From Bacteroidota bacterium (lineage in GTDB: Bacteria; Bacteroidota; Ignavibacteria; Ignavibacteriales; Ignavibacteriaceae): 64,000 nucleotides of DNA. The stretch spans positions 558,001 through 622,000 of the forward strand of contig JAIUOE010000001.1 in NCBI GenBank assembly GCA_020161395.1. Reading direction: 5' to 3'. The first letter of the stretch is position 1. Every line of letters begins with the position of its first letter. This document shows positions 13,608 through 62,258 of this stretch, piece by piece. The notes under the pieces are model-generated. The model had not been told where the DNA came from. It ran no database searches and saw nothing but the letters and a program-made list of their open reading frames with translations. The position numbers were made by a program, and so were the translations under genes.

Positions 13608-13698
13608 GCCAATGATGACTTTTAAATGAAAAAATTATGAAGATTACTGAAATAAAATTGTTTATTTACAAAATAATTCCTATTTTTGCACCAACATA

Positions 13699-13750
13699 CC
13701 TGCCAAGCCTATGTCCGGGAAACCGGTTACGCTCAAATGGGCAGGTTTTT
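13699..13750 (+). terminator. Probable terminator between the STAND and abi genes
   Basis: CCTGCC (13699-13704) pairs with GGCAGG (13740-13745). An inner CCGG/CCGG pair lies within the loop, and TTTTTCTTTTT follows. It lies after the res remnant and just before the abi gene, so the abi-res part probably has its own promoter, or receives only read-through from mod. Confidence 0.5.
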
Positions 13751-13761
13751 CTTTTTAAACC

Positions 13762-17573: not shown

Positions 17574-17601
17574 TTTGAATTTTTCAGGAAAAAGACACTA
17601 A

Positions 17602-25005: not shown

Positions 25006-25218
25006 TAAATTAGTAAATCTACTAACTTTTATACAGAATTAACACTAATTTAATGATAAACGGTAGTGTTATGCTGAAATCATGTAGAAACTGATGTCCC
25101 TTCCTCCCCTGCAGGATTGTAATGCAAAGAATATTTTGTAACTTTAGTTGTCTTTAAATTTATTATGTTTGACCGGATGAAGCGAGATCAGTTTCGTTCA
25201 CAAACAAGAGATGAAAAA

Positions 25219-26277
25219 ATGAAAAATCTCATTAATTCAGTTAAAATTTCCCTTCTTTTTCTTTCCGTGATCCTCAATTTATCCTGCTCAAAGGAGAACT
25301 CCTCCAATCCTGTAGAACCGGTGGATCAGACAAAACTTGACGCAGCTTTTTCACGGGCAGCCGGTATGACAAATCTTAAAAGTCTTGTTGTCTCCAGAAA
25401 TGGAACGATAGTAAAAGAGGCGTATTTTAACGGTGGAGGCGCTGATCTTACACATGATGTAAGGTCTGTAACAAAAAGTGTGGTTGCCATTCTGACAGGA
25501 ATTGCAATCGATAAGGGATTGATACAATCCGCTGAGCAGCCAATCGACAGCTTCATCAGGCCCCTGGTTCCGGACCTCTCAACCGAAAAAGGAAAAATCA
25601 CCATTGGCAACCTCCTCTCGATGAGCAGCGGTTTCGAGTGGGATGAATTAAATTCTGAATTCGGATACAACAACTGGGTGCTTGCTGAAAATCAGGTTCA
25701 ATATCTTTTTGCAAAGCCGCTGACCTCGCTGCCGGGGCTGACTTTTACATACAACTCTGCAGCTTTGCATATCCTGTCGGTGATTATTTCCCGTGCAGCC
25801 AAAATGCAAACCCTTGAATTTGCAAATATCCATTTTTTTGAAAAACTTGAAACGGGTGCGAGAAACTGGCAGACAGACCGGCAGGGTTACAACAACGGTG
25901 GTGCCGGATTGGAACTCACTCCCCGGGAAATGATAAAAATTGGAAACCTGATTCTCGACAAGGGTGAGTATATGGGACGGCGAATAGTTTCTCAGGAGTG
26001 GATCACCCGAATGAAAGGCCACCAGATTTCCCTTGCAGACAATACGATGAATTATGCAAACGGCTACGGATTTGGCTGGTGGACAGGGGAAGGTTCGAAA
26101 GGGAACTATGTTTTCGCAAACGGTTGGGGAGGGCAGTTTATCGTGGTTGTACCGGACTATAAACTGGTGATTACGGCGACAAATAAATGGAGCGGTGTTG
26201 GTTCCCCGGTGGCTAATCAGCAGTGGCTGGCAACAATTAACCTCATTATGTCGGATGTCCTGGGTGCTTTTAATTGA
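25219..26277 (+). CDS. Beta-lactamase-family serine hydrolase, lipoprotein
   Basis: A protein of 352 residues from the chosen start. The frame opens at 25165, but I prefer ATG 25219: it begins a normal signal (MKNLINSVKISLLFLSVILNL) ending at a lipid-type SC, and it has AGAG about ten bases upstream. The ATG at 25165 also falls inside a possible TATGTTTG promoter element (25164-25171). The catalytic S-x-x-K is in RSVTKSVVAIL, the Tyr-Asn-Ser motif is in FTYNSAALHIL, and a late ANGWGGQF segment replaces the third beta-lactamase motif. The family includes esterases and D-peptidases; substrate unknown. Confidence 0.82.
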   Translation: MKNLINSVKISLLFLSVILNLSCSKENSSNPVEPVDQTKLDAAFSRAAGMTNLKSLVVSRNGTIVKEAYFNGGGADLTHDVRSVTKSVVAILTGIAIDKGLIQSAEQPIDSFIRPLVPDLSTEKGKITIGNLLSMSSGFEWDELNSEFGYNNWVLAENQVQYLFAKPLTSLPGLTFTYNSAALHILSVIISRAAKMQTLEFANIHFFEKLETGARNWQTDRQGYNNGGAGLELTPREMIKIGNLILDKGEYMGRRIVSQEWITRMKGHQISLADNTMNYANGYGFGWWTGEGSKGNYVFANGWGGQFIVVVPDYKLVITATNKWSGVGSPVANQQWLATINLIMSDVLGAFN

Positions 26278-47568: not shown

Positions 47569-47841
47569 TTATTCAGTTCCAGATTTTCGAATGATTATTT
47601 GAAAATTCAATGCGTGCGATATTCTTTCGAGATAGTCAACCGAGATTGCAAAATTTCCGTTTTCGATTTTTGAAAGTGTCGATCTGCTAATACCAAGAAC
47701 TTCAGCCAATTGTTTCTGATTATATCCTTTTGACCTTCGAATCTCCATGATTGCCGTTCCAATTTCTTTTCTTAGTATCTTGGAACCCTTGGAATCAGGG
47801 TACAAAACCACAACATCATGTTCCGAAGACATAAAAGCCAT
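47569..47841 (-). CDS. XRE-family helix-turn-helix regulator
   Basis: A 90-residue DNA-binding protein. The helix-turn-helix is NQKQLAEVLGISRSTLSKIE (about 41-60), preceded by IMEIRRSKGY and followed by the usual ISVDYLERISHAL helix. Starts at residue 1 or at M4 are both possible. It overlaps the end of the upstream 133-residue gene by 26 bases, so they form a pair. It lies at the 3' side of the DISARM-like operon, and class 2 DISARM loci are often accompanied by such regulators; control of the operon is inferred. Confidence 0.85.
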   Translation of the reverse strand: MAFMSSEHDVVVLYPDSKGSKILRKEIGTAIMEIRRSKGYNQKQLAEVLGISRSTLSKIENGNFAISVDYLERISHALNFQIIIRKSGTE

Positions 47842-48217
47842 CGTGCTGTATGCCGGATTTATCTATTATTGTAAGTTGACAATTTGTAATTACCTTCCGC
47901 TCATCTCTGGACATTTCAAGAAATATTTCTTTGTCCTTGGCTGATATTACCCTTCCGTTAACCTCACTACCATCTCTTTTAATCAATGAGACTGTTTCAC
48001 CAATCATTTCGGTGGCTGATACTCTGACTTCTTCCAAATGGGAACTCTTGACCGTTAAGACAGGTGGAAATTGAAAATTAAAATTCAATGGTTTGATTGC
48101 AGCACGATTTGAGGTTTCATCATCCGAAATTTCAACGATGACATAGATTTGTGTCGGGTCTTCGTCGGGAAGAGGTGTGTGAAATCGAACTATCTGACCA
48201 GCTTTTAAAGTCTTCAT
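47816..48217 (-). CDS. Unrecognised 133-residue protein paired with the XRE regulator
   Basis: Beta-rich protein starting MKTLKAGQIVRFHTPLPDED. The first half reads like a small barrel (IYVIVEISDDE, RAAIKPLNFNFQFPP). The second half, with ETVSLIKRDGSEVNGRVIS, resembles an Sm/SH3-like strand set, and it ends with a short ITNCQLTIIDKSGI strand pair. Small proteins of this kind next to XRE regulators occur in Bacteroidota, so they may act together as an antitoxin-like or sensor pair. Its start lies 123 bases below drmB. Confidence 0.55.
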   Translation of the reverse strand: MKTLKAGQIVRFHTPLPDEDPTQIYVIVEISDDETSNRAAIKPLNFNFQFPPVLTVKSSHLEEVRVSATEMIGETVSLIKRDGSEVNGRVISAKDKEIFLEMSRDERKVITNCQLTIIDKSGIQHDGFYVFGT

Positions 48218-48340
48218 ATAAATTCTCTTGGATTATAAAAAAATGTTATGTGCAATATATTGAACATGCTGCAAAAAGTCAAAATCTTTCAACTTAACAT
48301 GAAATTTTGTTGACCTGATATTGAATCCAAAGATTCTGGA

Positions 48341-50551
48341 TTACAATAAATCCTTAAAAAAACCGAATTTCTCATCAATGAGTGCTCGCCGGTCTAAAGA
48401 GAGATTCATTTCTTCACAGGCAGTTTCAGAAACCATCGAACACGAAAAACAAGAGGCTAAGTTTAAATTATACAATCCGTTTGGCTCATTCAACCAGCAA
48501 AGCGGGTCTGCTGAACATGACATAGCTCTCCTGAGACTTTTACCAAACAAGTTGGAAAAAAGGGAAGGTGTTGCCTGCTGTATCAACCCACCCATACTCC
48601 CTTCCGAACCATCTACTGTATAAATAAGGAAGCCACTCATGGTGTCAGAGATGTACAATCTTTCTACGAGGCTCGCGGTCGGGTAACCGCATGAGTATTC
48701 AAGCTCTCGCATCAAAAGATGTGATAAGGTGTGAATCAATAACTTTTTGGGACCTTTATTTAGAAGATCTTGTTTTAGGTGATAACCAGACTCATTTGAA
48801 TCAAGTTGCCGATTGAAGAAATATTCATATACATCCTGAGGCAGATTACTCTCCCATTCCTTTATTTTATTCTGGTCAAGTACAACGAAAATGCCTTCGC
48901 CATAACTTACCCATCCGGGGATAGCGTAAACTTCTTCTGGTACACCCGAGTAAATTGGCCTAAGAGATCCATTCCTATGGGTGGCACCGTTAACCTCAAT
49001 CTCATAATACGGGGTAACTCTGGAAAAACCAGCCTGTACTTTAGTAACACAAAGTTTACCAATTCTTTTAATCTGTGCAAAATAGCTCATAAGACTTTCA
49101 GGTAAATCGACATTGTCGTAGGTTAATTTAGCATCAGAATAAGAATCTTTATTTGAAAAAAATGTATATTCCTGAGCACGATATTCTTCATCGTTGAGAG
49201 CGTTAGTCGCCTCTGCATTTAAAAATGAAATTCTTAACTCTTCGATGATGGCATCAAGACTCCCAATCTCCAAACCATTGTCCAATGCGTAATCCATTCT
49301 ATCCGCTGGCTCAAGGAAGATTTTATCATAATAGCTATTCCAGATTTGAACTCGGCTGAGTGTGGGATCATTTTCGATTCTTCTCTTGTAAAATACTTCT
49401 ATCGGTCGGAGAAGAAAATGGTTGATTTCCTCCGTTCTGGGAATAAAAAGGCTCGATTTCCCAAGGGGGAAATATACGCTGTTACCTGTAACTAAGGATA
49501 CCTGCATATGCTCAGATTGACCAGGATTTCCTGCACAATGACAATTATCATTGTTCCAGCTTATACCCCATTCCCATGGTTTCTCTCCTATGCAAAAAGG
49601 TTTAAGATTGTTAATTCCATCAAGCGAGACTTTCGGAGAATTATCTTCACCGGAGCCCATTTTACAAGCGGTACACTCTAAAAAAACACTCCCGAATCCT
49701 TCTCCTCTGGTTTTGCTTTCACTCCATTTTAACTCAGGTCTACTACAACAGTCCTTCATCCTAAAAAGAAAGCTACCATTATCATTTTGCTCATTTTCAA
49801 GGTTATTTAGTAACAATTGAGTTTTCCACCGCAAATATTTTGACCAAGGGATATCGGACAAATGTCCATTTCGACAAATCAGAATTAAATTTAACTGTTC
49901 CAGTTGTCGATAAAGTTTTATTTGCTTGTCAAAGTATTTGACAGATATATCCTTCCCGCCCTTTTTAACAATACCATTTGAATCCCTTGGTGGAACAAAG
50001 GCTGCTTCAGGTAACAATCGATTCAGTAGTGTATCGTGTTTACTTGTCCACTCTATTTTCCACTTATCATATTTCATTAATCGACCAAATCCATTCTTAA
50101 ACCATTTTGGGAAATGGGACGCGGTTAACATAAAGCTAGTTGCCTTTACCTCTTCCGGCAATATTTGTCTTATTGGATGATTTTCCCAATTTGGTTCATT
50201 AGAATAGTCAATAAGAGACATTGATGGTATCTCGATGAGAGATGTCAGATTATTAAGACCGAGAGAAGTGCGAAGATATTCAATGAATCTGAAGTCATCA
50301 ATAATGGTTATGCCTTGTCCGATCAAAGATGAACGGGCAGCTTTGTAAGCTTGAAAATTAGAACCACGAGCAGCTTCTATCGCTGTCCTTATTAAAGGTT
50401 TTGCATTCCGAATGAAAGGCCAGTGGTCGATTGAATCTATAAGAAAATAATAACCCATTTTGGACACAATAATCGATCCTACACCTGAAGTCGAAGAAAT
50501 AATTTTACTCTTGTCAACCGGTTCGTTATACTGGGTAGATTTCACTATCAT
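48341..50551 (-). CDS. drmB: DISARM DrmB-like protein (DUF1998)
   Basis: A 736-residue protein. The DUF1998 domain is at the C-terminus, with HTLSHLLMRELEYSCGYPTA from about residue 607, then GSEGSMGGLIQQA, and a cysteine cluster at about 679, 685, 701, 704 and 712 that probably binds zinc. A further cysteine set lies around CCSRPELKW and LECTACKMG in the middle. DrmB partners the DrmA helicase in all described DISARM systems, where the pair loads on unmethylated incoming DNA. The start is four bases after drmA. Length and domain place it firmly in the family. Confidence 0.85.
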   Translation of the reverse strand: MIVKSTQYNEPVDKSKIISSTSGVGSIIVSKMGYYFLIDSIDHWPFIRNAKPLIRTAIEAARGSNFQAYKAARSSLIGQGITIIDDFRFIEYLRTSLGLNNLTSLIEIPSMSLIDYSNEPNWENHPIRQILPEEVKATSFMLTASHFPKWFKNGFGRLMKYDKWKIEWTSKHDTLLNRLLPEAAFVPPRDSNGIVKKGGKDISVKYFDKQIKLYRQLEQLNLILICRNGHLSDIPWSKYLRWKTQLLLNNLENEQNDNGSFLFRMKDCCSRPELKWSESKTRGEGFGSVFLECTACKMGSGEDNSPKVSLDGINNLKPFCIGEKPWEWGISWNNDNCHCAGNPGQSEHMQVSLVTGNSVYFPLGKSSLFIPRTEEINHFLLRPIEVFYKRRIENDPTLSRVQIWNSYYDKIFLEPADRMDYALDNGLEIGSLDAIIEELRISFLNAEATNALNDEEYRAQEYTFFSNKDSYSDAKLTYDNVDLPESLMSYFAQIKRIGKLCVTKVQAGFSRVTPYYEIEVNGATHRNGSLRPIYSGVPEEVYAIPGWVSYGEGIFVVLDQNKIKEWESNLPQDVYEYFFNRQLDSNESGYHLKQDLLNKGPKKLLIHTLSHLLMRELEYSCGYPTASLVERLYISDTMSGFLIYTVDGSEGSMGGLIQQATPSLFSNLFGKSLRRAMSCSADPLCWLNEPNGLYNLNLASCFSCSMVSETACEEMNLSLDRRALIDEKFGFFKDLL

Positions 50552-50555
50552 TTGA

Positions 50556-53500
50556 TTACCTCAATTCAATTTTAATTGCTGCTTGTTGTTCTATTATCCT
50601 CAATGATTGGTTAACCTTCCAAATCTGACTGTGAACATTATCTTCATATTCATCAATGTCAACATAAAGAGCCGTCTGATTTCGTGATGGGGAGTTGAAT
50701 ACAAACCGTTGACTATCTTGAACAGAATTCGCTTTATTTGCCCAGTCGTCCAACATCTGATTTATCAGATTTTCAATTTGTTCAAGAACTCCTTCGTTCA
50801 AAAGCGACCTGATTGAATCCTGAAAACCGTTAGCATTATCTGTAACGAAACGGTATCTTCTTTTAAATTCCTCGAGAAACCTTGAGACAAAGTCCACCCT
50901 CTCTTGCAAATCATTAAGGCTGCTTATATTTGAGGCATTGTTCCTGTCTGTAAAATTTGACTCTAAATGTCTCAACATTGTTGCAAAATAAAGTGGAAAA
51001 TACTTTTCCAAAGCCTTGGGAGTGAAAGGGGTAATGGAAATCGGCTCTACAAAGCTATATATTTTACTGTGAAAACCTGAGAAGCGCTCGAAATGAGAAA
51101 TATCTCTTGCCCTAAATGGATTGTGTAAAGTCACTACCAATCCGGGATTCTCACGGGCGACCCTGCTTGAAGCCTGAATATACTCTGATAAGTTTCTCGG
51201 CATAGAATTGACTAACATAGTGTTTAATCGTGGTACATCGATTCCCACGGAAATCATGTTCGTTGCCAAGACTATGTCTGTTACTTTTGAATAACCTGCT
51301 TCTGTCAATTGCGTCCAAGGTTTTTTCAATTTTTCTAAATTATTTTTAACCTTATAGCCTTCGATTCTCCCTGTCATTTCAGTAGGATCAAGGGCAAAAG
51401 TATAAAGACCTTGGAGTAGTTTATTAGGCCTCACAACTCTATGGAAAACCTTTCTCACTTCTTTGATCAAATAAGAGGAAGTTTGTGCATCAGTTTTTCC
51501 TAAATCCTTAAGACTGTTGAAGTAGGCGATGACCGTGTGAAAGTTATCCATTACTTTATTGAAGTCAGCACTTGTTTCTTCGCCGGAAACCGGGTAATGT
51601 TTCATCAGAGTAACTGCACGATGGGTAAGTAAAATGGCTAAAATTCTCATTTGCGACCATATCTGAGTCCTGCCGGTTGGTAGCACACCTAAATATCTTC
51701 TTTTGGATTCATATTCATGCGTGCTTAAATCTGCAGTGTTAAAATTTCTCTTATAAAATGCAAAAAAAGAATCATCAATATCAATGCCTGGTTTTGGGAA
51801 AATATTTAGCCTTCTGTTATACAATGCGACAATTTGTAGTTCTGTGTTTCTTGTTGTTGCCGTAGACGAAATTATTTTCGGTCGTTTACCATCCTCCCTT
51901 TCGCAGAGTTTGTCAATCACTGTTTCAAACAAAGCTACTGCGGTTCCAAGTGGACCCAGTAACAAGTGAAGTTCGTCTTGGATAATCAGTTCTGGTGGTA
52001 TATACCCATCCATTGGTCTCCAATTTTCCCAATTCCCTCGTCCAAAAAGCCGTCTGGAATCATCACCTCTGCTTGTCCTCTCGGATGAGGCTTTGTGAGC
52101 CAATTGAGCAAATTTATCTACCGTTCCAAATAGAAGGGTGGGTGGATTTTCATAAATATCCTCATCGCACAAAGTCACCGGTATTGGGCCTTGAAAATAT
52201 TGGTCGGCGTGATCAGGAATGTCAAAATTAAAACTGCAAAAAGAGTTCGAACACTTTAATAATAGCTTATGCTCAAGGAAATTATTACCAACATCCCCAG
52301 GTAGTTGCGTCTCACCAGCTAATCCAGATCCACACCATAGACATTGTTCCAAAGGGATTTTTGATGGTTTATTGTCCCGTAATTTTTGCATTTCAACCGC
52401 GAGTGATTTGTCACCGATCCTTTTATTCGGAAGTGATTCTTTCCCCAGCCATAACCCGATAGTTACAGGTTCGACACCCAGAATACCGGGTTCCCATCTT
52501 CTAAGAAGTTCTAAAGCCATTATCAAGGTGGTGGCTCTTTGAAATTGTTGTAATGTGAGCAATCGGAGGGTATATCTCATCAATACTGCAGTACCACCCC
52601 CGCGTATTCCAAATGTTTTTCGACGGTTTATGATTGACAAAGCTATTAAACCAAGATAGGCTTCTGTTTTGCCACCACCTGTCGGGAACCACACGAGATC
52701 AACGAAATCATTTCTTGTACAATACTCTTCAGTTTCAAATATGCCATCCAGATTTAAAAGTATGAAAGCCAACTGGAACGGACGCCAGGATACCATCGAA
52801 TTACCGAAAATTAGCTCAGATTGATTTGAGTAAAAATTCGAATCGAAATTTTCGAACTCTTCTGTCAGAAGTGGTTTAACTTTATCATTCTTCACACTGG
52901 CTGAATGCCAAAGCTGCATAAACATTGCTGAATTCATCAGCCTGAATGAGTTCATCCGATTGTCATCACCAAGAAAATAATCAAGATTTCTTGACATCCT
53001 GTTATAATCAGCTCGGCATAAGTCCAGATTTGATAAGACAGGTGACAAGGAATCCTCAGCATTGGCTCGCCCTCTTGTTTTATCAATCCAGGATAAGTAA
53101 GCATCTACAAAACTTCTAAGTGATTCTCGAATTTGCTGATTGGTGGTCTCAGAAAAAGTTGACAGCCATTTAAATCTTAGAGAATTTGTGTCGAATTCAA
53201 ATTTTTTCGGTTTTCTCGCCTCTCCTTCGATTGTAACTTCTAATTTGTTTCTTGGGGTTGTATCTACATCCGGTACATCATAAGAAGGTAAATATTCTGT
53301 ATGAACAGTCATTTTCCCCTCCTGACTTTTATACCACGCAACTGAACATCCATGACCAGTTCCATATTCTTTAAACTCGCGATAGAGAATCTGTTCTCTT
53401 AATTCTTCAGCATCATCTCCAATTTCTTCATAGCCATTGTTGTTTACTGGTAAAATTGAAGAACTCGAGACATATAAAATGGTTCCAAAGAAACTACGAG

Positions 53501-54716
53501 AATTCACATCATCCTGTACAACTGAATAATAACTTTCGTTTTCTGGTCCCCCCTGAAAAGGAGTGCTGCTGTTAACTAACTGTAACTTAACATAATAACT
53601 ATGCTCATTATGAATATGAGACCGAGTAATTCTGATGTTCATTGAGATAGAAGATTTTTCACCATCTCGGAGCTCTTCTGAATATAAGTTCAATTTTGCA
53701 TTTTTTCCAAAAGTAAAATTTTTTGATCTTTCCCCATCTCTAAACTTAATTTCATTTGGATTCACCAAGTCACTAAATTTCCGCTCGACCAAAATTCTGT
53801 CACACTCCCAGATTCCTTTTCCTCCAGAGAAACTCGCTAACTTTAGAGCGTCCTTAATATGAGCGCTTGCGTTTTCAAAAAGTTCTATCTCTTGTGCAAT
53901 CTTGATGAAGTCGGCAGAATTCTGATGTTCGGAACTTATCAAATAAAAACACTTTTTGTAAATGGTTGAAAGTTGAGCTTTCTCTGGCAACCCTAATCCA
54001 AGATTATTCAAAGCTGGGATTAAATGAGAGGCTCTCCGAGATTCCAACTCTTCAAGCTTTTTCCACATATTTTTGTGTGTTTCACCCTTGTCTTTCGGTA
54101 CTTGGATTAAATAATTTTTACCGAATTCCACTAAGAGAATTTGGTTATCAGATTGATATCCTTCGTTTACCTCTCCGACCAATTTACTCATATATTCAAT
54201 CGGACATTCAACCAATAAATAAAATGGATTTGTATCCTTTACCGAAAGAGAACTTATTTTTCTGTATCGGCGAGCTTCTACTTTAATTTCGACATCGTTC
54301 CAACTGACATCGCTTTTAACGGAGAATGTCAATCCCATTGAAATGGGGTAGAGTTGCGATGCCTCAGTTATCTCATAAAATTCTTCAACCGGTTCATCAT
54401 TACCGGGATTGTCTTCTTGTTCTTCGCCTACAGATTCTCCGTTAACAGTATCCTCATCTTGTTCTGTGGTTTTCGGTACTGAAAGGCTGTTAAAAATTTC
54501 TTGAGGTGCAGCGGGAGGAAACAATATTCCAGTACTGTAAATACTGGCTGGCGGTAAATCAAGAATTTCATAAAAGTTATTAAGTGGGCTATCATCAATA
54601 ATCCTGCTATTTTCGTTGTGTTTCAATCTATTGATGATTCTGTATCCCATGGCTCCTGGACCCATAGTTTGTTCTCTGATAAACTTACAAAGTTCATCTC
54701 TTTTTTCTCTAATCAT
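50556..54716 (-). CDS. drmA: DISARM DrmA-like helicase
   Basis: A 1386-residue SF2 helicase-like protein. Walker A is FPTGGGKT at 677-684, motif II is QDELH at 913-917 (a DEAH variant typical of DrmA), motif III is SSTAT, and motif VI is QASSRVAR from 1181. The N-terminal ~650 residues are unassigned and beta-rich, with an acidic low-complexity stretch near 90-120. DrmA is the core ATPase of DISARM. It overlaps the upstream 834-residue gene by eight bases, so the genes are coupled. Catalytic motifs look intact. Confidence 0.87.
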   Translation of the reverse strand: MIREKRDELCKFIREQTMGPGAMGYRIINRLKHNENSRIIDDSPLNNFYEILDLPPASIYSTGILFPPAAPQEIFNSLSVPKTTEQDEDTVNGESVGEEQEDNPGNDEPVEEFYEITEASQLYPISMGLTFSVKSDVSWNDVEIKVEARRYRKISSLSVKDTNPFYLLVECPIEYMSKLVGEVNEGYQSDNQILLVEFGKNYLIQVPKDKGETHKNMWKKLEELESRRASHLIPALNNLGLGLPEKAQLSTIYKKCFYLISSEHQNSADFIKIAQEIELFENASAHIKDALKLASFSGGKGIWECDRILVERKFSDLVNPNEIKFRDGERSKNFTFGKNAKLNLYSEELRDGEKSSISMNIRITRSHIHNEHSYYVKLQLVNSSTPFQGGPENESYYSVVQDDVNSRSFFGTILYVSSSSILPVNNNGYEEIGDDAEELREQILYREFKEYGTGHGCSVAWYKSQEGKMTVHTEYLPSYDVPDVDTTPRNKLEVTIEGEARKPKKFEFDTNSLRFKWLSTFSETTNQQIRESLRSFVDAYLSWIDKTRGRANAEDSLSPVLSNLDLCRADYNRMSRNLDYFLGDDNRMNSFRLMNSAMFMQLWHSASVKNDKVKPLLTEEFENFDSNFYSNQSELIFGNSMVSWRPFQLAFILLNLDGIFETEEYCTRNDFVDLVWFPTGGGKTEAYLGLIALSIINRRKTFGIRGGGTAVLMRYTLRLLTLQQFQRATTLIMALELLRRWEPGILGVEPVTIGLWLGKESLPNKRIGDKSLAVEMQKLRDNKPSKIPLEQCLWCGSGLAGETQLPGDVGNNFLEHKLLLKCSNSFCSFNFDIPDHADQYFQGPIPVTLCDEDIYENPPTLLFGTVDKFAQLAHKASSERTSRGDDSRRLFGRGNWENWRPMDGYIPPELIIQDELHLLLGPLGTAVALFETVIDKLCEREDGKRPKIISSTATTRNTELQIVALYNRRLNIFPKPGIDIDDSFFAFYKRNFNTADLSTHEYESKRRYLGVLPTGRTQIWSQMRILAILLTHRAVTLMKHYPVSGEETSADFNKVMDNFHTVIAYFNSLKDLGKTDAQTSSYLIKEVRKVFHRVVRPNKLLQGLYTFALDPTEMTGRIEGYKVKNNLEKLKKPWTQLTEAGYSKVTDIVLATNMISVGIDVPRLNTMLVNSMPRNLSEYIQASSRVARENPGLVVTLHNPFRARDISHFERFSGFHSKIYSFVEPISITPFTPKALEKYFPLYFATMLRHLESNFTDRNNASNISSLNDLQERVDFVSRFLEEFKRRYRFVTDNANGFQDSIRSLLNEGVLEQIENLINQMLDDWANKANSVQDSQRFVFNSPSRNQTALYVDIDEYEDNVHSQIWKVNQSLRIIEQQAAIKIELR

Positions 54717-57213
54717 TTTTATTCCTTGGGGTTATATTATCAACAGGTTTTAGTTTAATTCTTGGTTTAATCCAGTTTACGAAACTTATTAAGGATTCTT
54801 CAACTGCTTCATCATCATAACATCCGATTAATTCCAAATCGTGTTTACCTAAATATTTTTCTTTGTTTTTACCTATAATGAATTCATAATCAGTCTCATC
54901 TTCCATGACCCGATCTTGAACAAGATCCCTCAAAATATCAATAAGTTGCCTGTTAGAATCTTTTACTAAAAGAGTCTCTGTTTTTTTAAGCTCTCTCATT
55001 TTTTGGTAATAATCTTTACCTAAGTTTAAAACTGTTATGCATAAAAATTTGAACAATCTTTTATCTCTAGGCAAAAATGCTTTTGCAGAATCGCACATCC
55101 AATAAGAAATAAAAGTGTGTTTACTGACAAGACTAAATCCAAATTTGTTACACAATTCAGAGATTTTATTATAATATACATCAATATCAGCATCATTATT
55201 TTTGATAAGAACTTTTCGCCAAATATTTTTATTATCTGTTTCATTTTCGAGTCGGTGAACTTCTTTCAGATGTGAAAAATCATAATAGTCTTCTTCTTTT
55301 TTCGATGTCATTTCGGAGATGAATTCTTTCAATATTTCCTCCACCGATTGAAGTTTCACAACTTCTCCACCCCTTTTTTTTTCGATTTCATTCAATCGAT
55401 TAATCTTTAGACCTGGTTTGGACTCTGTACTATAAAAATGGTAAGTGAAGGGATAAAAGTTCTGTGAACTATTATCAGAGAACTGTACCTGGTATATGAG
55501 GCTCTCATTTTGGTACTCTGTGCTATCATCATAGGTTGAATCAAAATCATTGTAAATTTGATTCTGGTAAACGATATCTTTGAAATTGACCCCTAAACCC
55601 TTACGAAAAAGCCCGTCCTCTTTTTTAGCAATTTCTATAAGATTATCATGAATATTCTTTTCGAATATAGATTTAAACAAAAACGATAAATAGATTGCCT
55701 CTTTTTTGCCCTGTCGTAATTTACTATTAACAACATTATGTGTATAAGTGAATGGGTAGGGCCCCGTATCACGATATTCAAGAATTACAGTATCAGTCCT
55801 TTCAATTTTTTCAATTTCGCGAATACTTTTAAATTCGTTTTGACCGTTAAATTCTTTTTTTACATTATCCATAATATCCCGGTCGTTCAGAACAAACTGG
55901 GGTAAGATTATGATATTGTTGTTCCTCATTTTTTTCCGTATTTCTGAAAGCCAATTTAATTTTAAGATTTCAGTTAATACTCTCCCCAATGATTCTTTTA
56001 CTTCGTTCTTCATGGTAGCATCCAAATTATGGATTGTATCCCTAAGACAACCATCCAAGATCTGGTTATGGCACTCATCGAAAACAATTTTCAATATTTT
56101 CTGTTTAATTTGTTCTGAAATACAGAGAGAGTAAAGTCTCCTCATTTTAACACCCACCAGTTTTTCAAGACCGGGCATAAGTTCTACTAGATACATGAAA
56201 TCATCCCATGAATCATTGTTAGCATTACCTATAAATGTCACATTTACTCTTTTGTTCATTATTTTCGATTCTTCTGGTAATAACAACTGAATCTCCTGAG
56301 GGAGAATCGTGTATCGCACAAATTTCAGATTGTCAATAGATCCTAAATATTCCAGTGACTTTTTGTATGAGCGTTGAAATGCCTCATATTTAAGTATTTC
56401 ATTATGAAAAGATAATAGCATTAATCCTTTGAAAGAATTTGAGACTCTTATATTATTATTCCTTTCTTGAAGATACCCACATTTCCAACGATTATGCAGA
56501 TTTTTTGGTATATTCATTGTATCATAATTCACAACATATTTTAGATTTTCGATTATAAAACCATCCATTCCATATTGCTTCTCTATTTTGGCAATATCAT
56601 TCATAGAAAAATTTCGATTAAGCAGTACATAAGAGAAATCAGGATTAGCTTGACCATTCATCTCACAAATAAAGGGCTTATTATCAAGAAGTTCGTGTAT
56701 ACTATCTTCGTTCATTTTTATGTTGACTATAACTGATGGAACAAATGAAGCATTATTATTGAGTGCAGCAAATTCTCTATAAAACCGCAATTTTTTATCA
56801 CATATGTTACGCTCTGCATTTATCTCAGCAATGGATTTGGGATTCCTGTCAAGGTCCCAAACCTGATTCCTGAAAAATTCCAGTCGAGAAATTACTTCGG
56901 ATAGAATAGAATTACCTCTATTGTCAGATGATAGTTCCGACATGAAAAATTTAATTACAAGAAATGATAAAATAATACTCCGATATTCTTTTTTTAAATC
57001 ACAGATGTGAATATGGAGTCCTCTCACAAAACCAGATTCCTCTTGTTTCAATATGCTCTCGTCTATTATTCTGTTAATATAGACTAACAAATTTTTTATC
57101 TGATCTTTATCCTTTGAAACAATATACGAGTAAATTTGCTCAAAATTTTCATCCGGTTTTGATACTATGCTATCTAATCTTTCCCTTAACTTCTCTTGAT
57201 CAATTCCTGTCAT
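54709..57213 (-). CDS. Unrecognised 834-residue protein in the DISARM-like operon
   Basis: Large cytoplasmic protein, rich in Lys, Asn and Ile, with no P-loop, no phospholipase-D HKD motif and no methyltransferase motif. A DECH string at 379-382 lies in a predicted helix without an accompanying Walker A, so I do not count it as a helicase. It occupies the place where class 2 DISARM has DrmE, whose size is comparable, so it is a candidate DrmE-like protein; I cannot confirm this from sequence alone. It overlaps both neighbours (14 bases with the SF1 helicase, 8 with drmA), so it belongs to the operon. Confidence 0.65.
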   Translation of the reverse strand: MTGIDQEKLRERLDSIVSKPDENFEQIYSYIVSKDKDQIKNLLVYINRIIDESILKQEESGFVRGLHIHICDLKKEYRSIILSFLVIKFFMSELSSDNRGNSILSEVISRLEFFRNQVWDLDRNPKSIAEINAERNICDKKLRFYREFAALNNNASFVPSVIVNIKMNEDSIHELLDNKPFICEMNGQANPDFSYVLLNRNFSMNDIAKIEKQYGMDGFIIENLKYVVNYDTMNIPKNLHNRWKCGYLQERNNNIRVSNSFKGLMLLSFHNEILKYEAFQRSYKKSLEYLGSIDNLKFVRYTILPQEIQLLLPEESKIMNKRVNVTFIGNANNDSWDDFMYLVELMPGLEKLVGVKMRRLYSLCISEQIKQKILKIVFDECHNQILDGCLRDTIHNLDATMKNEVKESLGRVLTEILKLNWLSEIRKKMRNNNIIILPQFVLNDRDIMDNVKKEFNGQNEFKSIREIEKIERTDTVILEYRDTGPYPFTYTHNVVNSKLRQGKKEAIYLSFLFKSIFEKNIHDNLIEIAKKEDGLFRKGLGVNFKDIVYQNQIYNDFDSTYDDSTEYQNESLIYQVQFSDNSSQNFYPFTYHFYSTESKPGLKINRLNEIEKKRGGEVVKLQSVEEILKEFISEMTSKKEEDYYDFSHLKEVHRLENETDNKNIWRKVLIKNNDADIDVYYNKISELCNKFGFSLVSKHTFISYWMCDSAKAFLPRDKRLFKFLCITVLNLGKDYYQKMRELKKTETLLVKDSNRQLIDILRDLVQDRVMEDETDYEFIIGKNKEKYLGKHDLELIGCYDDEAVEESLISFVNWIKPRIKLKPVDNITPRNKND

Positions 57214-58930
57214 AAACGAAAATCCTTAAATGGTTGATAGCTCTTGTTACACCTATAAAAATTTCATACTGATTAAAAAAAGATAACTGGTTCACAACTA
57301 AAATCACATTCGGTCTTTCAAGTCCTTTAAATTTTAATATTGATGTATATTGAAGATTGTGGGTTTCTTTTCCGATGTTTGATGGATCCATTTCCTCAAA
57401 ACCAGGTACGGTGATAAGAGTAGTCAAATCATACTGGTCTGGCGTTACATGATTAATAATAGTAGATTCAATTAGTAGAACGCAGTCTCCTGCAATTAAA
57501 GATGAGGTGGAATCCTTAAAATTAAGTACATACTCGCTCATTAATTTTCTTTTGATTTCCTTCAGGTTCTTATGAATTGTTACCAGTAGACTACTGTCGT
57601 TTAGTCCCTCATGCAAGGAAAACCCCCTTTCCCACAATCTATTGCTCAATTCAATTATCCTGGGTGCTTGCAACTGCCTTTTAATTGAAACCAGCCGGAA
57701 ATGTGCATAATGCTCACTAAGTAACTTTGACACCTCAAAAGCTTCTTGATAACCGGATCTGTGAGCTTGTTCAATATCATAAAGGATAAGCGAATCGCCT
57801 TCCGTCAAACCTTTGCTGTTATATCCACAAAGTCTGTTTATGACCGCTTCAATCCCGCGATTAAATATGTCTTGACCCTCATCAATCACCATATAATCGT
57901 ATTGCGGAAGATTGTTGTTCCGCATGGTTTTATAAACCAATTCTGAAAATTCTTCGGGGTCAAACTTAATGACTGTTCGATAGTTAATTTTATTATTTAA
58001 TTTTATTAGCAATCGTGTTAATGTAGTAACCTCGACTGAATTGTTTAGCCCTCTCTTGTCCAGCATTTTTTGAGTATAAGCCATCAAAAGATTATTCCAA
58101 CATATGTATATTCCTCTTTTACCTTTCTTCCTATCCAGATAACCCTTTGCAATAGTTGTCTTACCACTTCCCGGCGGTCCCTCTATCATTATTCTTTTAT
58201 TCTCGTAAAGTGCATCGAGTATATCGAGGTTCTCGATTTGTAACCACTCTAGAGTAGAGGATTTAGGAAGAGTATTATGGTCATAAATTGTCGGGGAGAG
58301 GTTATCTTTAATCACACTTAGTTCATGGTCAGTCAGATTACGATATTTCCTACCCTGCGTCTGATGCCTGCTCTGAACTTCGTTAAAAACTCCGATTATG
58401 AAACTTTCTATTGAATTATTGTATTCCGATTCTCCTCTGAATAAAGTCCACAAGTAGGCATCATTTATTAATTTTAAATTTAGCCGAAATTGTACATCTG
58501 GAAAAGCAACGGCATGGCAAAACAAAGAATGGGAAAAAGGTGATAAAACACCTTTCAACAAAGTATATTTATATCCTTCAGCCTGCTGAAACGGGTCCTG
58601 GTTCATTTTTTTATCAAAATTATTTCCATAGAAAAAAGTACCGTCACTAATGGAAATATCTCCACCCTTAACTTCAAGAACTAAAATACCGCGCTGACAA
58701 ACAATCAGAAAGTCTATTTGAGCGCTAATTTTTTTGTAGGGATTAAAGTCGAGATTGTGATGTGAAAGATTTAAATCATGCCATACAAAATATTTTTCTT
58801 CACTTTTCCCTAAGTCCCGCAATAGTAACTTGTATACTGATATTTCGCCTCTATTCGGTCTGCCATCCTGATTAAGAATAATAGTGTCCAAGCGGGAAAC
58901 ATCTTTATTTGGGAAAAAATTGACTGGCAT
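57200..58930 (-). CDS. NERD nuclease-SF1 (UvrD-like) helicase
   Basis: A 576-residue protein. The N-terminal NERD domain (about 25-130) has D73 in QIDFLIV and E86-x-K88 in LVLEVKGG, the PD-(D/E)XK catalytic pattern. A compact SF1 helicase follows: Walker A GPPGSGKT (251-258), motif II DEGQD (350-354), and a late VTRA (561-564). No long 1B/2B insertions are seen, so the helicase may be reduced. A nuclease-helicase inside a DISARM-type operon is not part of the described class 1 or 2 sets. It starts 11 bases after the methyltransferase gene and overlaps the next gene. Confidence 0.83.
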   Translation of the reverse strand: MPVNFFPNKDVSRLDTIILNQDGRPNRGEISVYKLLLRDLGKSEEKYFVWHDLNLSHHNLDFNPYKKISAQIDFLIVCQRGILVLEVKGGDISISDGTFFYGNNFDKKMNQDPFQQAEGYKYTLLKGVLSPFSHSLFCHAVAFPDVQFRLNLKLINDAYLWTLFRGESEYNNSIESFIIGVFNEVQSRHQTQGRKYRNLTDHELSVIKDNLSPTIYDHNTLPKSSTLEWLQIENLDILDALYENKRIMIEGPPGSGKTTIAKGYLDRKKGKRGIYICWNNLLMAYTQKMLDKRGLNNSVEVTTLTRLLIKLNNKINYRTVIKFDPEEFSELVYKTMRNNNLPQYDYMVIDEGQDIFNRGIEAVINRLCGYNSKGLTEGDSLILYDIEQAHRSGYQEAFEVSKLLSEHYAHFRLVSIKRQLQAPRIIELSNRLWERGFSLHEGLNDSSLLVTIHKNLKEIKRKLMSEYVLNFKDSTSSLIAGDCVLLIESTIINHVTPDQYDLTTLITVPGFEEMDPSNIGKETHNLQYTSILKFKGLERPNVILVVNQLSFFNQYEIFIGVTRAINHLRIFVYDRN

Positions 58931-58941
58931 ACCTGTCTCTG

Positions 58942-60738
58942 CTAAATAATTTTCATTTTTTGATAATATTTCCTCGTCATCTCCGCTTTGTCTTCCCTTA
59001 AATCGGTTTCAATTTGTTCTTCAGATGAAACTGTTTTTTTTATTGTATTAAGGTGAGTAGATACAACATTAATCATATACATTGCAAAAAGTTGCTGCCT
59101 CGGAATCCTTGATTTGGGGAGCTGAAATATCTCATTATCCCAATCAATCAATTCTTCCTTTGAAGAGTAGCGGATGATTAATTTCTCCAACCCAGAAATA
59201 AACATGGTTGGCTCTAAATAGCTGTTTATCCCTTCTTGAGCCTCGTACATCTCTTGGAAAGTCACTGAATCAGCCAAACGCATCAAAATGGTTCTATTGA
59301 ATTCAGAAATGATAGCTTTTCCATTTTCCTGCTTCAGAATCAAGTCAAATATTCTCTTGTGCAAATGGTCGGGCATGTTTTTTGAGAAGAAACCCAATCC
59401 AGTCCCACATTGAACTGAGCTAAACCATTTCCCGATATATTTTGAATTTTCACCTATGTCATAATTTGACAGAGAAACTGTTATTCCTCCTGCCTTAACC
59501 GGATGTCGACGGAATCTAGCTCCTGGTTTTTTTCTTCTAATTCTAATTTCGTCAACTCTTTTCTTACCTTTTAATTCTGTGTCCCAAGTAATTTCCCGTC
59601 TAGTTAGCAGAGGTAGATTTTCTACTTTCCGGCCCTCCAAGATATTTATTTGATTTGCATAGGCCCTGCTAACCGATGGGCAGACAGCATTTCCTACAAG
59701 TCGAATTTTCGCGGTAAGACCCCCTAAAAACTGGAAATCAATCGGAAATCCCATTAGAGAAGCCGATTCTCTCACTGTAGGGAGTCGAAACATTGCAGCT
59801 CCGTTATGATAATCTCTGCTTTTTATTATTAGAGATTCTCTGGATGTTCCAATATGCGTAGCAGTTACCGTTCTTGACGGCTTGTTTTCATCTTCAGGGA
59901 AACTCATTCTACCCATATACGGATGGTTTGTTTTAAGGAACCTTGATGTTTCCCACTCAACACTTGTTAGTCCGGTATCGTAAAAGTGGTCTGTTAACTG
60001 ATCAGAACAAAGTTCGAGACCATTGAAATTCGGATCCTTAATCTTATAGATTGAGTCGTGTATATTAATATTTGGTGAAGGGAATGAATCAATTACTTGA
60101 CCAAGGGTTCGAAACGGTAATTTTCCGTTTTTTATTATTTGCGAGTGAGAAGGTACCGGAGAGAATGGTTTGCCATCGCTTACTCGTTCAGTTACGATAG
60201 CTCTTTTTCTAATTTGAGGTGAGCCAAACTCTGCAGAATTAACAACTTTGTGATTGTCAAAAATATTGATCGCGATAGTTTCTGGATCAATTTCATTGGC
60301 AATTGCCCATTCTGATAAATCCAGTTGTTCAAAAGTATAATATGGAGGAAGATGCCTGATGGAGTTAGGAACATTTTCCATGACCCAATACTTAAGCATT
60401 GATCCTGATTGGAATTTTTTTACAGAGATAATGCGCAGAAATGCTTCCGTCAGCCGCATTCCCAAAGATTTATCGGCTTTACCAGATTTATTCGAAGATG
60501 AAAAACTTACACAAGGCGGGCTGCCAATTATAATATCTGTATCGGGTAAAGCAATAATTTTGGCAACATCTGTTCCCAAGTCAAGAATGTTTATTTTTTT
60601 GCATGTTTGATGAAAGTTGTGGTTGTAGGTATTGACAGCCGGCTCCCAGTTGTCAAACCCGCCAATAATCTTAAAACCGGCTTGTTGAAAACCTTCAGAG
60701 AAGCCGCCTGCACCACAAAAGAAATCTAATACGGTCAT
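58942..60738 (-). CDS. drmMII: C5 cytosine DNA methyltransferase, DrmMII-like
   Basis: A 598-residue methyltransferase, first gene of the operon. Motif I is DFFCGAGGFSEGF (5-17), motif IV is GSPPCVSFS with catalytic C76, motif VI is ENV (121-123), motif VIII is in SPQIRKRAI, and motif X is GNAV (349-352). All catalytic parts are intact. About 230 residues beyond motif X form an unassigned C-terminal region with a basic KGKKRVDEIRIRRKK segment. In DISARM the methyltransferase marks self DNA; the recognition sequence here is unknown. The upstream region holds inverted repeats that may control it. Confidence 0.88.
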   Translation of the reverse strand: MTVLDFFCGAGGFSEGFQQAGFKIIGGFDNWEPAVNTYNHNFHQTCKKINILDLGTDVAKIIALPDTDIIIGSPPCVSFSSSNKSGKADKSLGMRLTEAFLRIISVKKFQSGSMLKYWVMENVPNSIRHLPPYYTFEQLDLSEWAIANEIDPETIAINIFDNHKVVNSAEFGSPQIRKRAIVTERVSDGKPFSPVPSHSQIIKNGKLPFRTLGQVIDSFPSPNINIHDSIYKIKDPNFNGLELCSDQLTDHFYDTGLTSVEWETSRFLKTNHPYMGRMSFPEDENKPSRTVTATHIGTSRESLIIKSRDYHNGAAMFRLPTVRESASLMGFPIDFQFLGGLTAKIRLVGNAVCPSVSRAYANQINILEGRKVENLPLLTRREITWDTELKGKKRVDEIRIRRKKPGARFRRHPVKAGGITVSLSNYDIGENSKYIGKWFSSVQCGTGLGFFSKNMPDHLHKRIFDLILKQENGKAIISEFNRTILMRLADSVTFQEMYEAQEGINSYLEPTMFISGLEKLIIRYSSKEELIDWDNEIFQLPKSRIPRQQLFAMYMINVVSTHLNTIKKTVSSEEQIETDLREDKAEMTRKYYQKMKII

Positions 60739-60900: not shown

Positions 60901-61575
60901 TCACCCGTCCAGTTCCCCGCTTTTTTGCCATCTGATGTAATCATCGTCGGGGGTATTGATGGCGTACCTTACCCGTTTGGAGTATCTTCTGAGACTTCGC
61001 CATGTTTCAAGTTTGTTGGTGAGTTTTATCCTGCGGTTGTCCAGATTTCTGATGATTTCGTTCACGAATGCTACGCTAACATTCTGATTCAGGAGTTCTT
61101 CAAACCGTGTATTAACAAGTTCTGCAAATGATTCGGGAAAGTGGGCACAAAGTCTCTTCAGATATTCTGCTCTTTTACGCTCGGACAGAGTTGCATCCAT
61201 GAATCGTTCTATCAGTATCTCTTCAGTGAAACCGGAGTTTGGAAGCAATTTTTCAATCTGTTCCATATCGTAATTTTTGAGATGAGGTCGCCCTGTCTCT
61301 AAAATTTGTTTGTGAAGTTGTGTGGCAAAATCTGTAAGCTTTTCAGGAGAGCCTGATTCCAGATACAATTGTGTCATCAGCGAAGGAGAGTGGTGAAATT
61401 TGGTTGAATCTCTCTTAATCAGCAAATCGCTGATTTTGCTCTGGATGATTGATGCAAAAAAGAGTCTGTCAGGTTCGGGCAATGAAACAATATAATAGAA
61501 AAATTCTCTGAGCTCCTCAAATGTAACGGCAAGGAGATTTGAGTCGTCCGGTGTGTGGAGGTTTTCGGTTTTCAT
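60901..61575 (-). CDS. Unknown protein, paralogue of the 61572 gene
   Basis: A 224-residue cytoplasmic helical protein. It shares with its neighbour the pattern F-x-x-x-x-x-LP-x-x-x-R-x-FF-x-x-I near the start (REFFYYIVSLPEPDRLFFASI) and an SGSPEKLTDFA block near 80. It overlaps the upstream gene in an ATGA. No known family recognised. It ends right beside the DISARM control region but faces the same way, so it might supply read-through transcription. Confidence 0.65.
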   Translation of the reverse strand: MKTENLHTPDDSNLLAVTFEELREFFYYIVSLPEPDRLFFASIIQSKISDLLIKRDSTKFHHSPSLMTQLYLESGSPEKLTDFATQLHKQILETGRPHLKNYDMEQIEKLLPNSGFTEEILIERFMDATLSERKRAEYLKRLCAHFPESFAELVNTRFEELLNQNVSVAFVNEIIRNLDNRRIKLTNKLETWRSLRRYSKRVRYAINTPDDDYIRWQKSGELDG

Positions 61576-62258
61576 TTTGTTTCCCCTTTGTTTAAGAAAG
61601 CACCTTGTGTGATCAGTCTGTTATAATCACTGTTATGGGTTACAACCGGTTTTTCGGCATGAATTGAGTAGTCATGGATCGCCTTAAATGTTGCAAATTG
61701 ATCGATCAACTCGTCGTCATAAGCAAAAATCTTATCAATGACAATATTGATGAATTTGCGGTGTGCCTTATTCTCCTGCAGAAATTCGGACAGGTGTTCA
61801 TGGAAGTAGAGGAAGATATCTTTCCGGAAGTCGTCAACCAAAGTTAACAGGGCATCTTCTCTTATGGTGATGCTTTTACCTGTGTCGGTGAAGAGACTGA
61901 AGAGCCGCTCTTTTTCCGTTTCATCATTTTCATACATGTCATCCAGAATTCTGGTTGCATACATGTCATCCCAGTCCCCGTTTTTGGCGGTTGCCCAATC
62001 GCGTGCATTTACGGCAAATTCCTTCAGGGTCTTCGGAGAGCCCAGTTTCCGATAGAGTATGTCCACATTGAGAGGGTCATAACCTTTGTGATATCCGTCT
62101 TTTTCATAATTGAAAAATAACCAGTTTAGCCCTTCAAGGATATCGGAAAAAAACACTCTTTCCCTGTGAGGCAGATTTGATATTTTTTCGAAAAAATTTT
62201 CTATCCGGTTAAAGGATTCTGCTGTTTTGTTTGATGAATTTGATACGCCGGTTCCCAT
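61572..62258 (-). CDS. Unknown protein, paralogue of the 60901 gene
   Basis: A 228-residue cytoplasmic helical protein beginning MGTGVSNSSNKTAESFNRIE. The related blocks are FFEKISNLPHRERVFFSDIL and KLGSPKTLKEFA. Together with the 60901 gene it forms a translationally coupled pair from an old tandem duplication. No function can be assigned. Confidence 0.65.
   Translation of the reverse strand: MGTGVSNSSNKTAESFNRIENFFEKISNLPHRERVFFSDILEGLNWLFFNYEKDGYHKGYDPLNVDILYRKLGSPKTLKEFAVNARDWATAKNGDWDDMYATRILDDMYENDETEKERLFSLFTDTGKSITIREDALLTLVDDFRKDIFLYFHEHLSEFLQENKAHRKFINIVIDKIFAYDDELIDQFATFKAIHDYSIHAEKPVVTHNSDYNRLITQGAFLNKGETK

What the first reader, a model, noticed from the sequence alone, without database searches (positions are those of the whole stretch)
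47569..60738. DISARM-like operon without DrmC and with a NERD-SF1 helicase
The gene order is C5 methyltransferase, NERD-SF1 helicase, 834-residue unknown, DrmA-like, DrmB-like, then a small protein and an XRE regulator. Described DISARM systems have the DrmABC core plus DrmMII/DrmE or DrmMI/DrmD. Here no phospholipase-D motif exists anywhere in the locus, and a nuclease-helicase takes part instead. It may be a new DISARM subtype in which the NERD nuclease replaces DrmC.
Basis: partly seen in the sequence, partly recalled or inferred. Interest (0 to 1): 0.8.

Follow-up and report, generated by a model that had tools for sequence, protein, structure and literature searches.

The report
DISARM-like defence with helicase-nuclease, no DrmC
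This bacterium carries a five-gene, DISARM-like operon, presumably against phages, in which the usual DrmC nuclease was not found and a fused nuclease-helicase is a fixed member; the same operon recurs across distant Bacteroidota, which gives a concrete candidate for how DrmC-less DISARM systems might cut phage DNA.

Summary
On the minus strand, 60738-48341, lie a C5 methyltransferase, a NERD-SF1 helicase, an 834-residue protein, DrmA and DrmB, almost without gaps. The same order recurs in the 15 related Bacteroidota loci found, as far as their contigs reach; 11 show all five genes. I found no DrmC in the operon, in the parts of those loci in view or in the genome (class-I DrmC model). NERD and helicase motifs are intact and the five genes diverged together, so the NERD gene is no chance neighbour. 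The 834-residue protein is predicted to hold a Walker-less SF2-helicase-like fold and is perhaps a very diverged DrmE. Among 20 DrmB-bearing Bacteroidota genomes, NERD-SF1 helicases accompany DrmAB in 12 (2 on another contig) and DrmC in 2, never both; that exclusivity is not significant (p = 0.15). NERD genes of other DISARM-like loci form separate lineages. Verdict: a new variant of DISARM in which NERD-SF1 probably, but not demonstrably, does the cutting. The 133-residue protein and XRE regulator are not conserved parts.

The parts
58942..60738 (-). C5-cytosine DNA methyltransferase (DrmMII-like), 598 aa, with a conserved C-terminal extension (about residues 400-598) of unassigned fold
   Evidence: PF00145 4.3e-37; PADLOC DrmMII 3.2e-25, general MTase_II models higher, 9.5e-47; 45-49% identity to 15 homologues; C-terminal model pLDDT 83.9, only weak matches, Z up to 3.6
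57200..58930 (-). NERD nuclease domain fused to SF1 helicase, 576 aa; D73, E86, K88 and the Walker A lysine invariant in 15 of 15 aligned
   Evidence: PF08378 1.4e-12; PADLOC RTasNERD-Hel 8.5e-23; alignment A7; own clade 100/100 in the NERD-SF1 tree
54709..57213 (-). 834 aa protein, perhaps a strongly diverged DrmE: Walker-less SF2-helicase-like N-terminal fold plus a C-terminal part weakly like that of proteins at the DrmE position of other loci
   Evidence: no library hit; model pLDDT 73.5, pTM 0.52; VIA Z 11.6 to Mss116, model residues 10-318, rmsd 4.1, 212 aligned; no Walker A in 14 of 14; hhalign test
50556..54716 (-). DrmA, DISARM SF2 (YprA-type) helicase, 1386 aa, with an acidic segment at about residues 83-122
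   Evidence: NF038325 3.9e-226, 753.7 bits (cut-off 950); PADLOC DrmA 1e-178; acidic segment in the window and 10 of 10 other loci examined
48341..50551 (-). DrmB, DUF1998/MZB protein, 736 aa
   Evidence: NF038324 253.1 bits, over cut-off 240; PADLOC DrmB 1.1e-46
47816..48217 (-). 133 aa protein of unknown function, overlapping the XRE gene; local, no counterpart beside the related operons
   Evidence: no family hit in PADLOC, Pfam, PHROGs, only sub-cut-off NCBIfam hits; no blastp match in the related loci
47569..47841 (-). XRE-type regulator, 90 aa; local
   Evidence: HTH_3 3.9e-16; no blastp match in the 15 related loci

Best explanation
It is a DISARM variant: DrmMII-type MTase, NERD-SF1 helicase, a probable diverged DrmE, DrmA and DrmB, without DrmC. 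Proposed mechanism: the MTase marks host DNA (inferred from the family). DrmAB, held inactive by an acidic loop in DrmA (inferred), loads on exposed single-stranded or 5'-overhang unmethylated phage DNA (shown for Serratia DrmAB in PMC9142583; inferred here). The DrmE-like protein, a helicase fold without an ATP-binding motif, acts as scaffold or adaptor (inferred). NERD-SF1 is recruited as translocating nuclease and degrades the bound phage DNA, the job proposed for DrmC elsewhere (inferred). Shown here: gene content, order, co-divergence, intact catalytic motifs, and no DrmC found.
For: Same order in 15 of 15 related loci as far as contigs reach; all five genes visible in 11 of 15. Gaps of -38 to +11 bases in the window and 10 loci measured, and Spearman correlations of pairwise identity of 0.85-0.95 between all gene pairs, 0 of 1000 permutations as high. 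NERD D/E/K and Walker A residues invariant in 15 of 15; in the 27 proteins the printed match shows the NERD motif in 24, and the other three are in the set. DrmA of the window and 11 loci forms one group (SH-aLRT 97). No DrmC profile hit in these loci (sequence downstream of DrmB is in view in 10 of 15, about 0.7-1.1 kb each) or in the genome. NERD-SF1 with 12 of 20 DrmB-bearing genomes among 395 Bacteroidota. DrmE reading: 4 of 16 candidate proteins match the 834 aa family at P < 0.01 against 0 of 208 background ORFs; L083, in the sister branch, matches the DrmE_fam C-terminal part at 9.1e-9, below its cut-off.
Against: No functional test exists. DrmC is dispensable in studied DISARM, so a missing DrmC need not be replaced. 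NERD/DrmC exclusivity is not significant. For DrmE: 12 of 16 candidates did not reach P < 0.01, and 69 of 208 background best hits fall in the same part of the 834 aa family (residues 640-830), so location alone says little; neither the window protein nor L065, L066, L069, L077, L082 hits DrmE_fam. DrmA is below the equivalog cut-off and was not compared with an experimentally studied class-2 DrmA. The acidic loop was picked as the most acidic 40 residues near the N-terminus, without a control. The genome holds another PLD nuclease, NgoFVII-type, which DrmAB could in principle borrow. A NERD domain in PglW has been called a possible red herring (PMC9009780, one passage).
Confidence: 0.55

Rival explanations
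1. NERD-SF1 is a conserved DISARM component but not the effector nuclease: it remodels or unwinds DNA (or regulates the MTase), while DrmAB blocks phage replication by loading and translocating, without any cutting.
For: DrmC is dispensable in studied systems and blocking without cutting has been proposed (PMC9142583, passages). Some DrmAB loci carry an SF1 helicase without NERD (L074, L080, L064), others no NERD or DrmC that I could find (L066, L069), so the helicase part may matter more than the nuclease.
Against: D73, E86 and K88 are invariant in 15 of 15 NERD proteins of this clade, unexpected if the nuclease were idle.
Confidence: 0.25
2. Two adjacent modules: a NERD-SF1/MTase restriction unit and a separate 834 aa-DrmAB unit that are transcribed together but act independently.
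For: DrmAB with a large protein before DrmA but no NERD exists in the same DrmA branch (L065, L066, L069, L082, L083). NERD-SF1 helicases occur outside DISARM (L029, L100).
Against: No NERD-SF1 of this clade was found without the operon: of 395 Bacteroidota genomes (3 candidates scored in each), the three with this type (G000, G053, G245) all have DrmAB. The NERD gene lies between MTase and 834 aa gene, mostly with overlapping or touching ends.
Confidence: 0.12
3. The 834 aa protein is not DrmE but a new component; the system is then a distinct DISARM class rather than a class-2 derivative.
For: No DrmE_fam hit; profile comparison with one DrmE-family protein negative; it is the fastest-evolving gene, 21% mean identity of the window copy to the other 10 against 44-47% for the other four genes.
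Against: Same size and same place before DrmA as the large proteins of sister loci, one of which (L083) carries a sub-cut-off DrmE_fam C-terminal match, and C-terminal profile matches above background for 4 of 16.
Confidence: 0.35

Closest known systems
DISARM class 2 (DrmMII, DrmE, DrmA, DrmB, DrmC)
   Same: C5 MTase, DrmA and DrmB, a protein of about 800 aa before DrmA
   Different: No DrmC found; NERD-SF1 helicase between MTase and the 834 aa gene; the 834 aa protein is not recognised by DrmE models; MTase has an extra C-terminal domain. PADLOC's type II definition requires DrmC and DrmE (PMC9252829, passage read)
DISARM class 1 (DrmD, DrmMI, DrmA, DrmB, DrmC)
   Same: DrmA and DrmB core
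   Different: No DrmD, DrmMI or DrmC hit among the 10 proteins scanned
Other DrmAB loci with NERD-SF1 helicases (L024, L025, L026, L028, L031, L057-L060, L062, L063, L079)
   Same: NERD-SF1 beside DrmAB, no DrmC profile hit in view (Pfam NERD confirmed for L026, L031, L057, L058, L079)
   Different: Different gene order, the gene before NERD often split in two, or an UvrD gene instead; NERD and DrmA in separate lineages. The paper searches listed nothing that I saw to describe them
TALON (Bell et al. 2025, PMC12458937; abstract, passages and section 8 read)
   Same: YprA-type helicase with a NERD-type nuclease
   Different: TALON has an ARMADA-like YprA with TPR-CSD and TBP genes, largely in Chloroflexota; no such families were hit here
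DISARM-like operons with ShdA/RmuC (PMC10270631; passages read)
   Same: DISARM-like core with an extra partner gene
   Different: Partner is an RmuC-domain protein, not NERD-SF1
DISARM-like cassettes beside McrBC (PMC11090510 and PMC12458937; passages read)
   Same: DISARM-like core in a larger assemblage
   Different: No McrBC family hit among the proteins scanned here
PADLOC RTasNERD-Hel (DRT-associated NERD helicase)
   Same: NERD-SF1 architecture (8.5e-23)
   Different: No reverse transcriptase among the proteins scanned

Membership tests
DISARM (core) | DrmA helicase | tested here: met
   PADLOC DrmA 1e-178; NCBIfam DrmAS 3.9e-226 but 753.7 bits, below the equivalog cut-off of 950
DISARM (core) | DrmB, DUF1998 protein | tested here: met
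   NF038324 253.1 bits over cut-off 240
DISARM (core) | DNA methyltransferase in the operon | tested here: met
   PF00145 4.3e-37
DISARM (core) | DrmC, PLD nuclease (required by PADLOC's definitions; often missing from annotated operons according to PMC9142583) | tested here: not met
   No PLD or DrmC family among the 10 proteins; no DrmC profile hit in the related loci as far as in view; none in the genome with NF038319 (DrmC_I), which rang in 10 of 14 control genomes; PF13091 hits are other proteins
DISARM class 2 | DrmE | tested here: inconclusive
   No DrmE model hit; position, size and weak C-terminal profile matches point to DrmE
DISARM class 2 | DrmMII C5 methyltransferase | tested here: met
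   C5 MTase; PADLOC DrmMII models hit, though general MTase_II models score higher
DISARM class 1 | DrmD and DrmMI | tested here: not met
   No hit among the 10 proteins of and around the operon
DISARM | protects against phage | not testable with these tools
   needs an experiment
TALON | ARMADA-like YprA helicase with TPR-CSD and TBP genes | tested here: not met
   DrmA and DrmB are separate genes of DISARM families; no TPR, CSD or TBP family among the 10 proteins scanned
DRT-associated NERD helicase system | reverse transcriptase gene | tested here: not met
   no reverse transcriptase family among the 10 proteins scanned

The most novel reading that the evidence does not exclude
DrmAB is a sensor and loading platform with exchangeable effector nucleases: NERD-SF1 helicase-nucleases were recruited more than once in place of the PLD nuclease DrmC (here with a pseudo-helicase, perhaps DrmE, as adaptor), and other effectors such as a PIWI-domain Argonaute with an AAA_5 protein (G057, L103) occupy the same slot. 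The 'missing nuclease' of DrmC-less DISARM would thereby be identified.
Probability: 0.4. Interest if true: 0.78.

Novelty: new variant of a known kind. Interest (0 to 1): 0.6.

Why it matters
How DISARM disposes of phage DNA is open: DrmC is dispensable and often missing from annotated operons, and a borrowed PLD nuclease has been proposed (PMC9142583, passages). A conserved NERD-SF1 nuclease-helicase with intact motifs, built into DrmC-less operons, is a direct, testable alternative. A definition that requires DrmC and DrmE (PMC9252829) would not report such loci as DISARM type II, so they may be under-counted.

Tried and rejected
Scans of genome contigs and viral contigs with the 834 aa protein: no relative; plasmids: none. 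Viral contigs with the NERD alignment: none. 834 aa family against one DrmE-family protein by profile: no match. 834 aa model against viral proteins: nothing below E 0.001, helicases among the top rows. Fold search of the MTase C-terminal domain: nothing reliable; PUR-alpha, Whirly and PC4 type single-strand-binding folds recur at Z 2.2-3.5, under a top row of Z 3.6, too weak to use. A nuclease hidden in that extension: no family hit, left open. Another PLD of the genome as DrmC: the PF13091 hits are a polyphosphate kinase, an NgoFVII-type restriction enzyme and a PfkB kinase; other PLD families were not searched. Promoter and terminator scan: 64 against 46.1 (sd 8.2) expected for promoters, 8 against 8.7 for terminators, not used. 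Mutual exclusion of NERD and DrmC as proof: p = 0.15 (20 loci) and 0.27 (36 loci), rejected as proof. L077 as a class-2 reference: its layout fits (C5 MTase, 801 aa, helicase, DUF1998), but the 801 aa protein has no DrmE hit and its DrmA is a long branch, so it is dropped as a reference.

In the DrmA tree two rows labelled 'none' are mislabelled: L067 (G245), whose NERD gene and MTase are on another contig, and L073, whose NERD match lies just before the end of the circular record, next to its start (H17). The NERD label of the two groups together was not counted on the tree, so 'more than one recruitment' is a reading of separate branches; one early gain with many losses is not excluded. L076, counted as 'neither', has a UvrD-type helicase beside DrmA. 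Of the 16 candidates one (L058, 584 aa) lies downstream of DrmB, not at the DrmE position, and one background ORF (L060) is in truth a near copy of a candidate (L059).
Full report
WHAT IS THERE. Pfam, PADLOC and NCBIfam identify a C5 methyltransferase, a NERD-SF1 helicase, DrmA, DrmB and an XRE regulator; the 834 aa protein has no hit and the 133 aa protein only sub-cut-off ones. DrmB passes the NCBIfam cut-off; DrmA scores 753.7 bits against an equivalog cut-off of 950, so it is DrmA-like but off the modelled types. G+C of 47569-60738 is 0.365 against 0.423 in the rest of the window. The window lies in a genome of 4.07 Mb in 21 contigs. G053, of the same phylum, has a contig of the same length and proteins 99.8-100% identical to the Psychroflexus curvus record L014, so the phylum is Bacteroidota.

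CONSERVATION. Among 395 genomes of the phylum (two candidates scored in each listed genome), the own genome and G053 match the 834 aa protein. G053 shows the same five genes in the same order, with 45-48% identity for four of them and 24% for the 834 aa protein. A genome-contig scan with the NERD alignment gave 15 loci (L005-L019, L014 being the Psychroflexus record), from Flavobacteriaceae, Weeksellaceae, Crocinitomicaceae, Cytophagaceae, Spirosomataceae, Sphingobacteriaceae, Saprospiraceae, Marinilabiliaceae, Prolixibacteraceae and others. The scan uses short patterns and so favours close relatives. In all 15 the order is MTase, NERD-SF1, 834-type, DrmA, DrmB as far as the contig reaches: all five in 11 (DrmB cut by the contig end in L009), four with DrmA cut in L010 and L012, the first two in L006 and L019. 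In the window and 10 loci, gaps run from -38 to +11 bases and pairwise identities of all gene pairs correlate at 0.85-0.95 (0 of 1000 permutations as high). What follows DrmB varies: of 9 such ORFs scanned from these loci, NUDIX (L005), Mrr_cat_2 (L011), HNH_2 (L014), a type I restriction remnant (L015), a zinc ribbon (L016), no family in 4. The 133 aa and XRE genes have no blastp counterpart there.

NO DrmC FOUND. A DrmC profile made from three DrmC proteins finds none in the 15 loci; sequence after DrmB is in view in 10 of them, about 0.7-1.1 kb each, which covers the usual place of DrmC but not more. The DISARM_DrmC_I family has no match in the own genome although it rings in 10 of 14 control genomes. 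The PLDc_2 matches of the genome are a polyphosphate kinase, an NgoFVII-type restriction enzyme and a PfkB protein.

WIDER SURVEY. DrmB_fam occurs in 20 of 395 phylum genomes. With stretches of up to 20 kb around them, annotated: NERD-SF1 beside DrmAB in 10 (G000, G053, G028, G104, G143, G179, G205, G241, G374, G386), and on a separate contig in 2 (G058, a fragment next to a DrmE_fam gene; G245, where the MTase and a NERD gene with an internal stop lie on one short contig and DrmA-DrmB on another). DrmC in 2 (G165, G207, both with DrmMI), an SF1 helicase without NERD in 1 (G167), neither in 5 (G057, G071, G263; G361 and G319 at contig ends). Of 16 plasmid loci that I chose from 55 records: NERD 2 (L079; L073 across the record start), DrmC 1 (L087), SF1 only 3 (L074, L080; L084 by profile and annotation), neither 10 (some reach a record end). 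Loci L026-L031 came from a NERD search and are left out of these counts. None of the 36 has both; Fisher p = 0.27, and 0.15 for the 20. Outside DISARM, NERD-SF1 proteins occur too (L029, L100).

TREES. In the DrmA tree of 46 rows (quick method, SH-aLRT only) the window and 11 related loci form one group (97), with L067 next (100) and then L065, L066, L069, L082, L083 (99); DrmC loci lie elsewhere, with loci that have an N6-MTase gene. Two 'none' labels there are wrong (L067, L073). Rooting is by midpoint only. In the NERD tree (27 rows) this clade is separated by a 100/100 branch of length 2.7 from the NERD proteins of other DrmAB loci, among which the three non-DISARM ones fall. The simplest reading is more than one recruitment; one gain with losses is not excluded.

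THE 834 aa PROTEIN. The model (14 sequences, pLDDT 73.5, pTM 0.52) matches SF2 helicase cores: Foldseek E 6.9e-5 for MDA5 with low TM-scores; VIA Z 11.6, rmsd 4.1, 212 residues for Mss116 over residues 10-318. No Walker A motif occurs in 14 of 14 members. By profile, 4 of 16 candidate proteins (L082, L069, L023, L072) match its C-terminal part at P below 0.01, against 0 of 208 background ORFs; the other 12 do not, and 69 of 208 background best hits also fall in residues 640-830. L023, L072 and, in the sister branch, L083 carry DrmE_fam matches over that model's C-terminal part (80.9, 65.2 and 34.1 bits; cut-off 80), while L077 and L082 have none, nor L065, L066, L069. I take the 834 aa protein as a diverged DrmE at about 0.6.

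MECHANISM. From Serratia DrmAB (PMC9142583; passages read): an autoinhibitory trigger loop, preference for 5'-overhang DNA, ATPase lowered by methylated DNA, and the open question of the nuclease, since DrmC is dispensable and often missing. Here DrmA has an acidic segment (net -11 to -15 in 40 residues, window and 10 of 10 loci, no control) that could play the loop's part, by inference. NERD-SF1 has intact nuclease and ATPase motifs and is the most economical candidate for the nuclease. None of this was tested at the bench.

NOVELTY. In the listings and passages that I saw from searches for DISARM with DrmA/DrmB, DISARM with NERD, DrmE, NERD with DUF1998, DrmC, NERD domain with antiphage, and DISARM subtypes no such operon is described. 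Bell et al. 2025 (PMC12458937) mention many uncharacterised DISARM-like classes and NERD only for TALON; their supplements were not read, so a listing there is possible. DISARM-like operons with ShdA (PMC10270631) and beside McrBC (PMC11090510) are reported. Subscription papers, among them the original DISARM report, were not read. I file it as a new variant of a known kind.

Noticed in passing
L103:434-7974 and L065:6437-14420 (G057): DISARM-like operon with N6/N4 MTase, C5 MTase, AAA_5 protein, 559 aa unknown, a PIWI-domain Argonaute (PF02171 1.7e-15), an 816 aa protein, DrmA and DrmB: an Argonaute where DrmC or NERD would be.
   Followed up: partly
window 7763-20619: A second defence-like cluster: N6/N4 MTase, 1276 aa unknown, Abi_2 protein, Res subunit with RE_endonuc domain, and a 1005 aa protein with HSDR_N_2.
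   Followed up: no
L101 (MT837356.1, human faecal contig labelled as phage, unverified): A 471 aa unknown, a NERD-SF1 helicase (33% to L003's) and a 794 aa protein matching the C-terminal half of the 834 aa family (25%, 1.4e-10): a more distant form of the same pair.
   Followed up: partly
window 58942-59643 (MTase residues about 366-598): Conserved C-terminal extension of the MTase, confident model (pLDDT 83.9) but no reliable fold match; weak single-strand-binding-type matches.
   Followed up: partly
L074, L080, L084, L064: DrmAB loci with an SF1 helicase without a NERD domain (Pfam run on L074, L080, L064), so the helicase half may be the more general partner.
   Followed up: no
window 60901-62258: Two adjacent proteins (224 and 228 aa) without a family hit over cut-off, directly upstream of the operon.
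   Followed up: no
L099:3-1673 (G245): NERD-SF1 gene of this type interrupted by one stop codon, next to a full-length MTase; a possibly decayed copy or an assembly fault near the contig end.
   Followed up: no
window 25165-26277: Protein with a Beta-lactamase (serine hydrolase) family domain, PF00144 2.7e-24; family membership only, no resistance implied.
   Followed up: no
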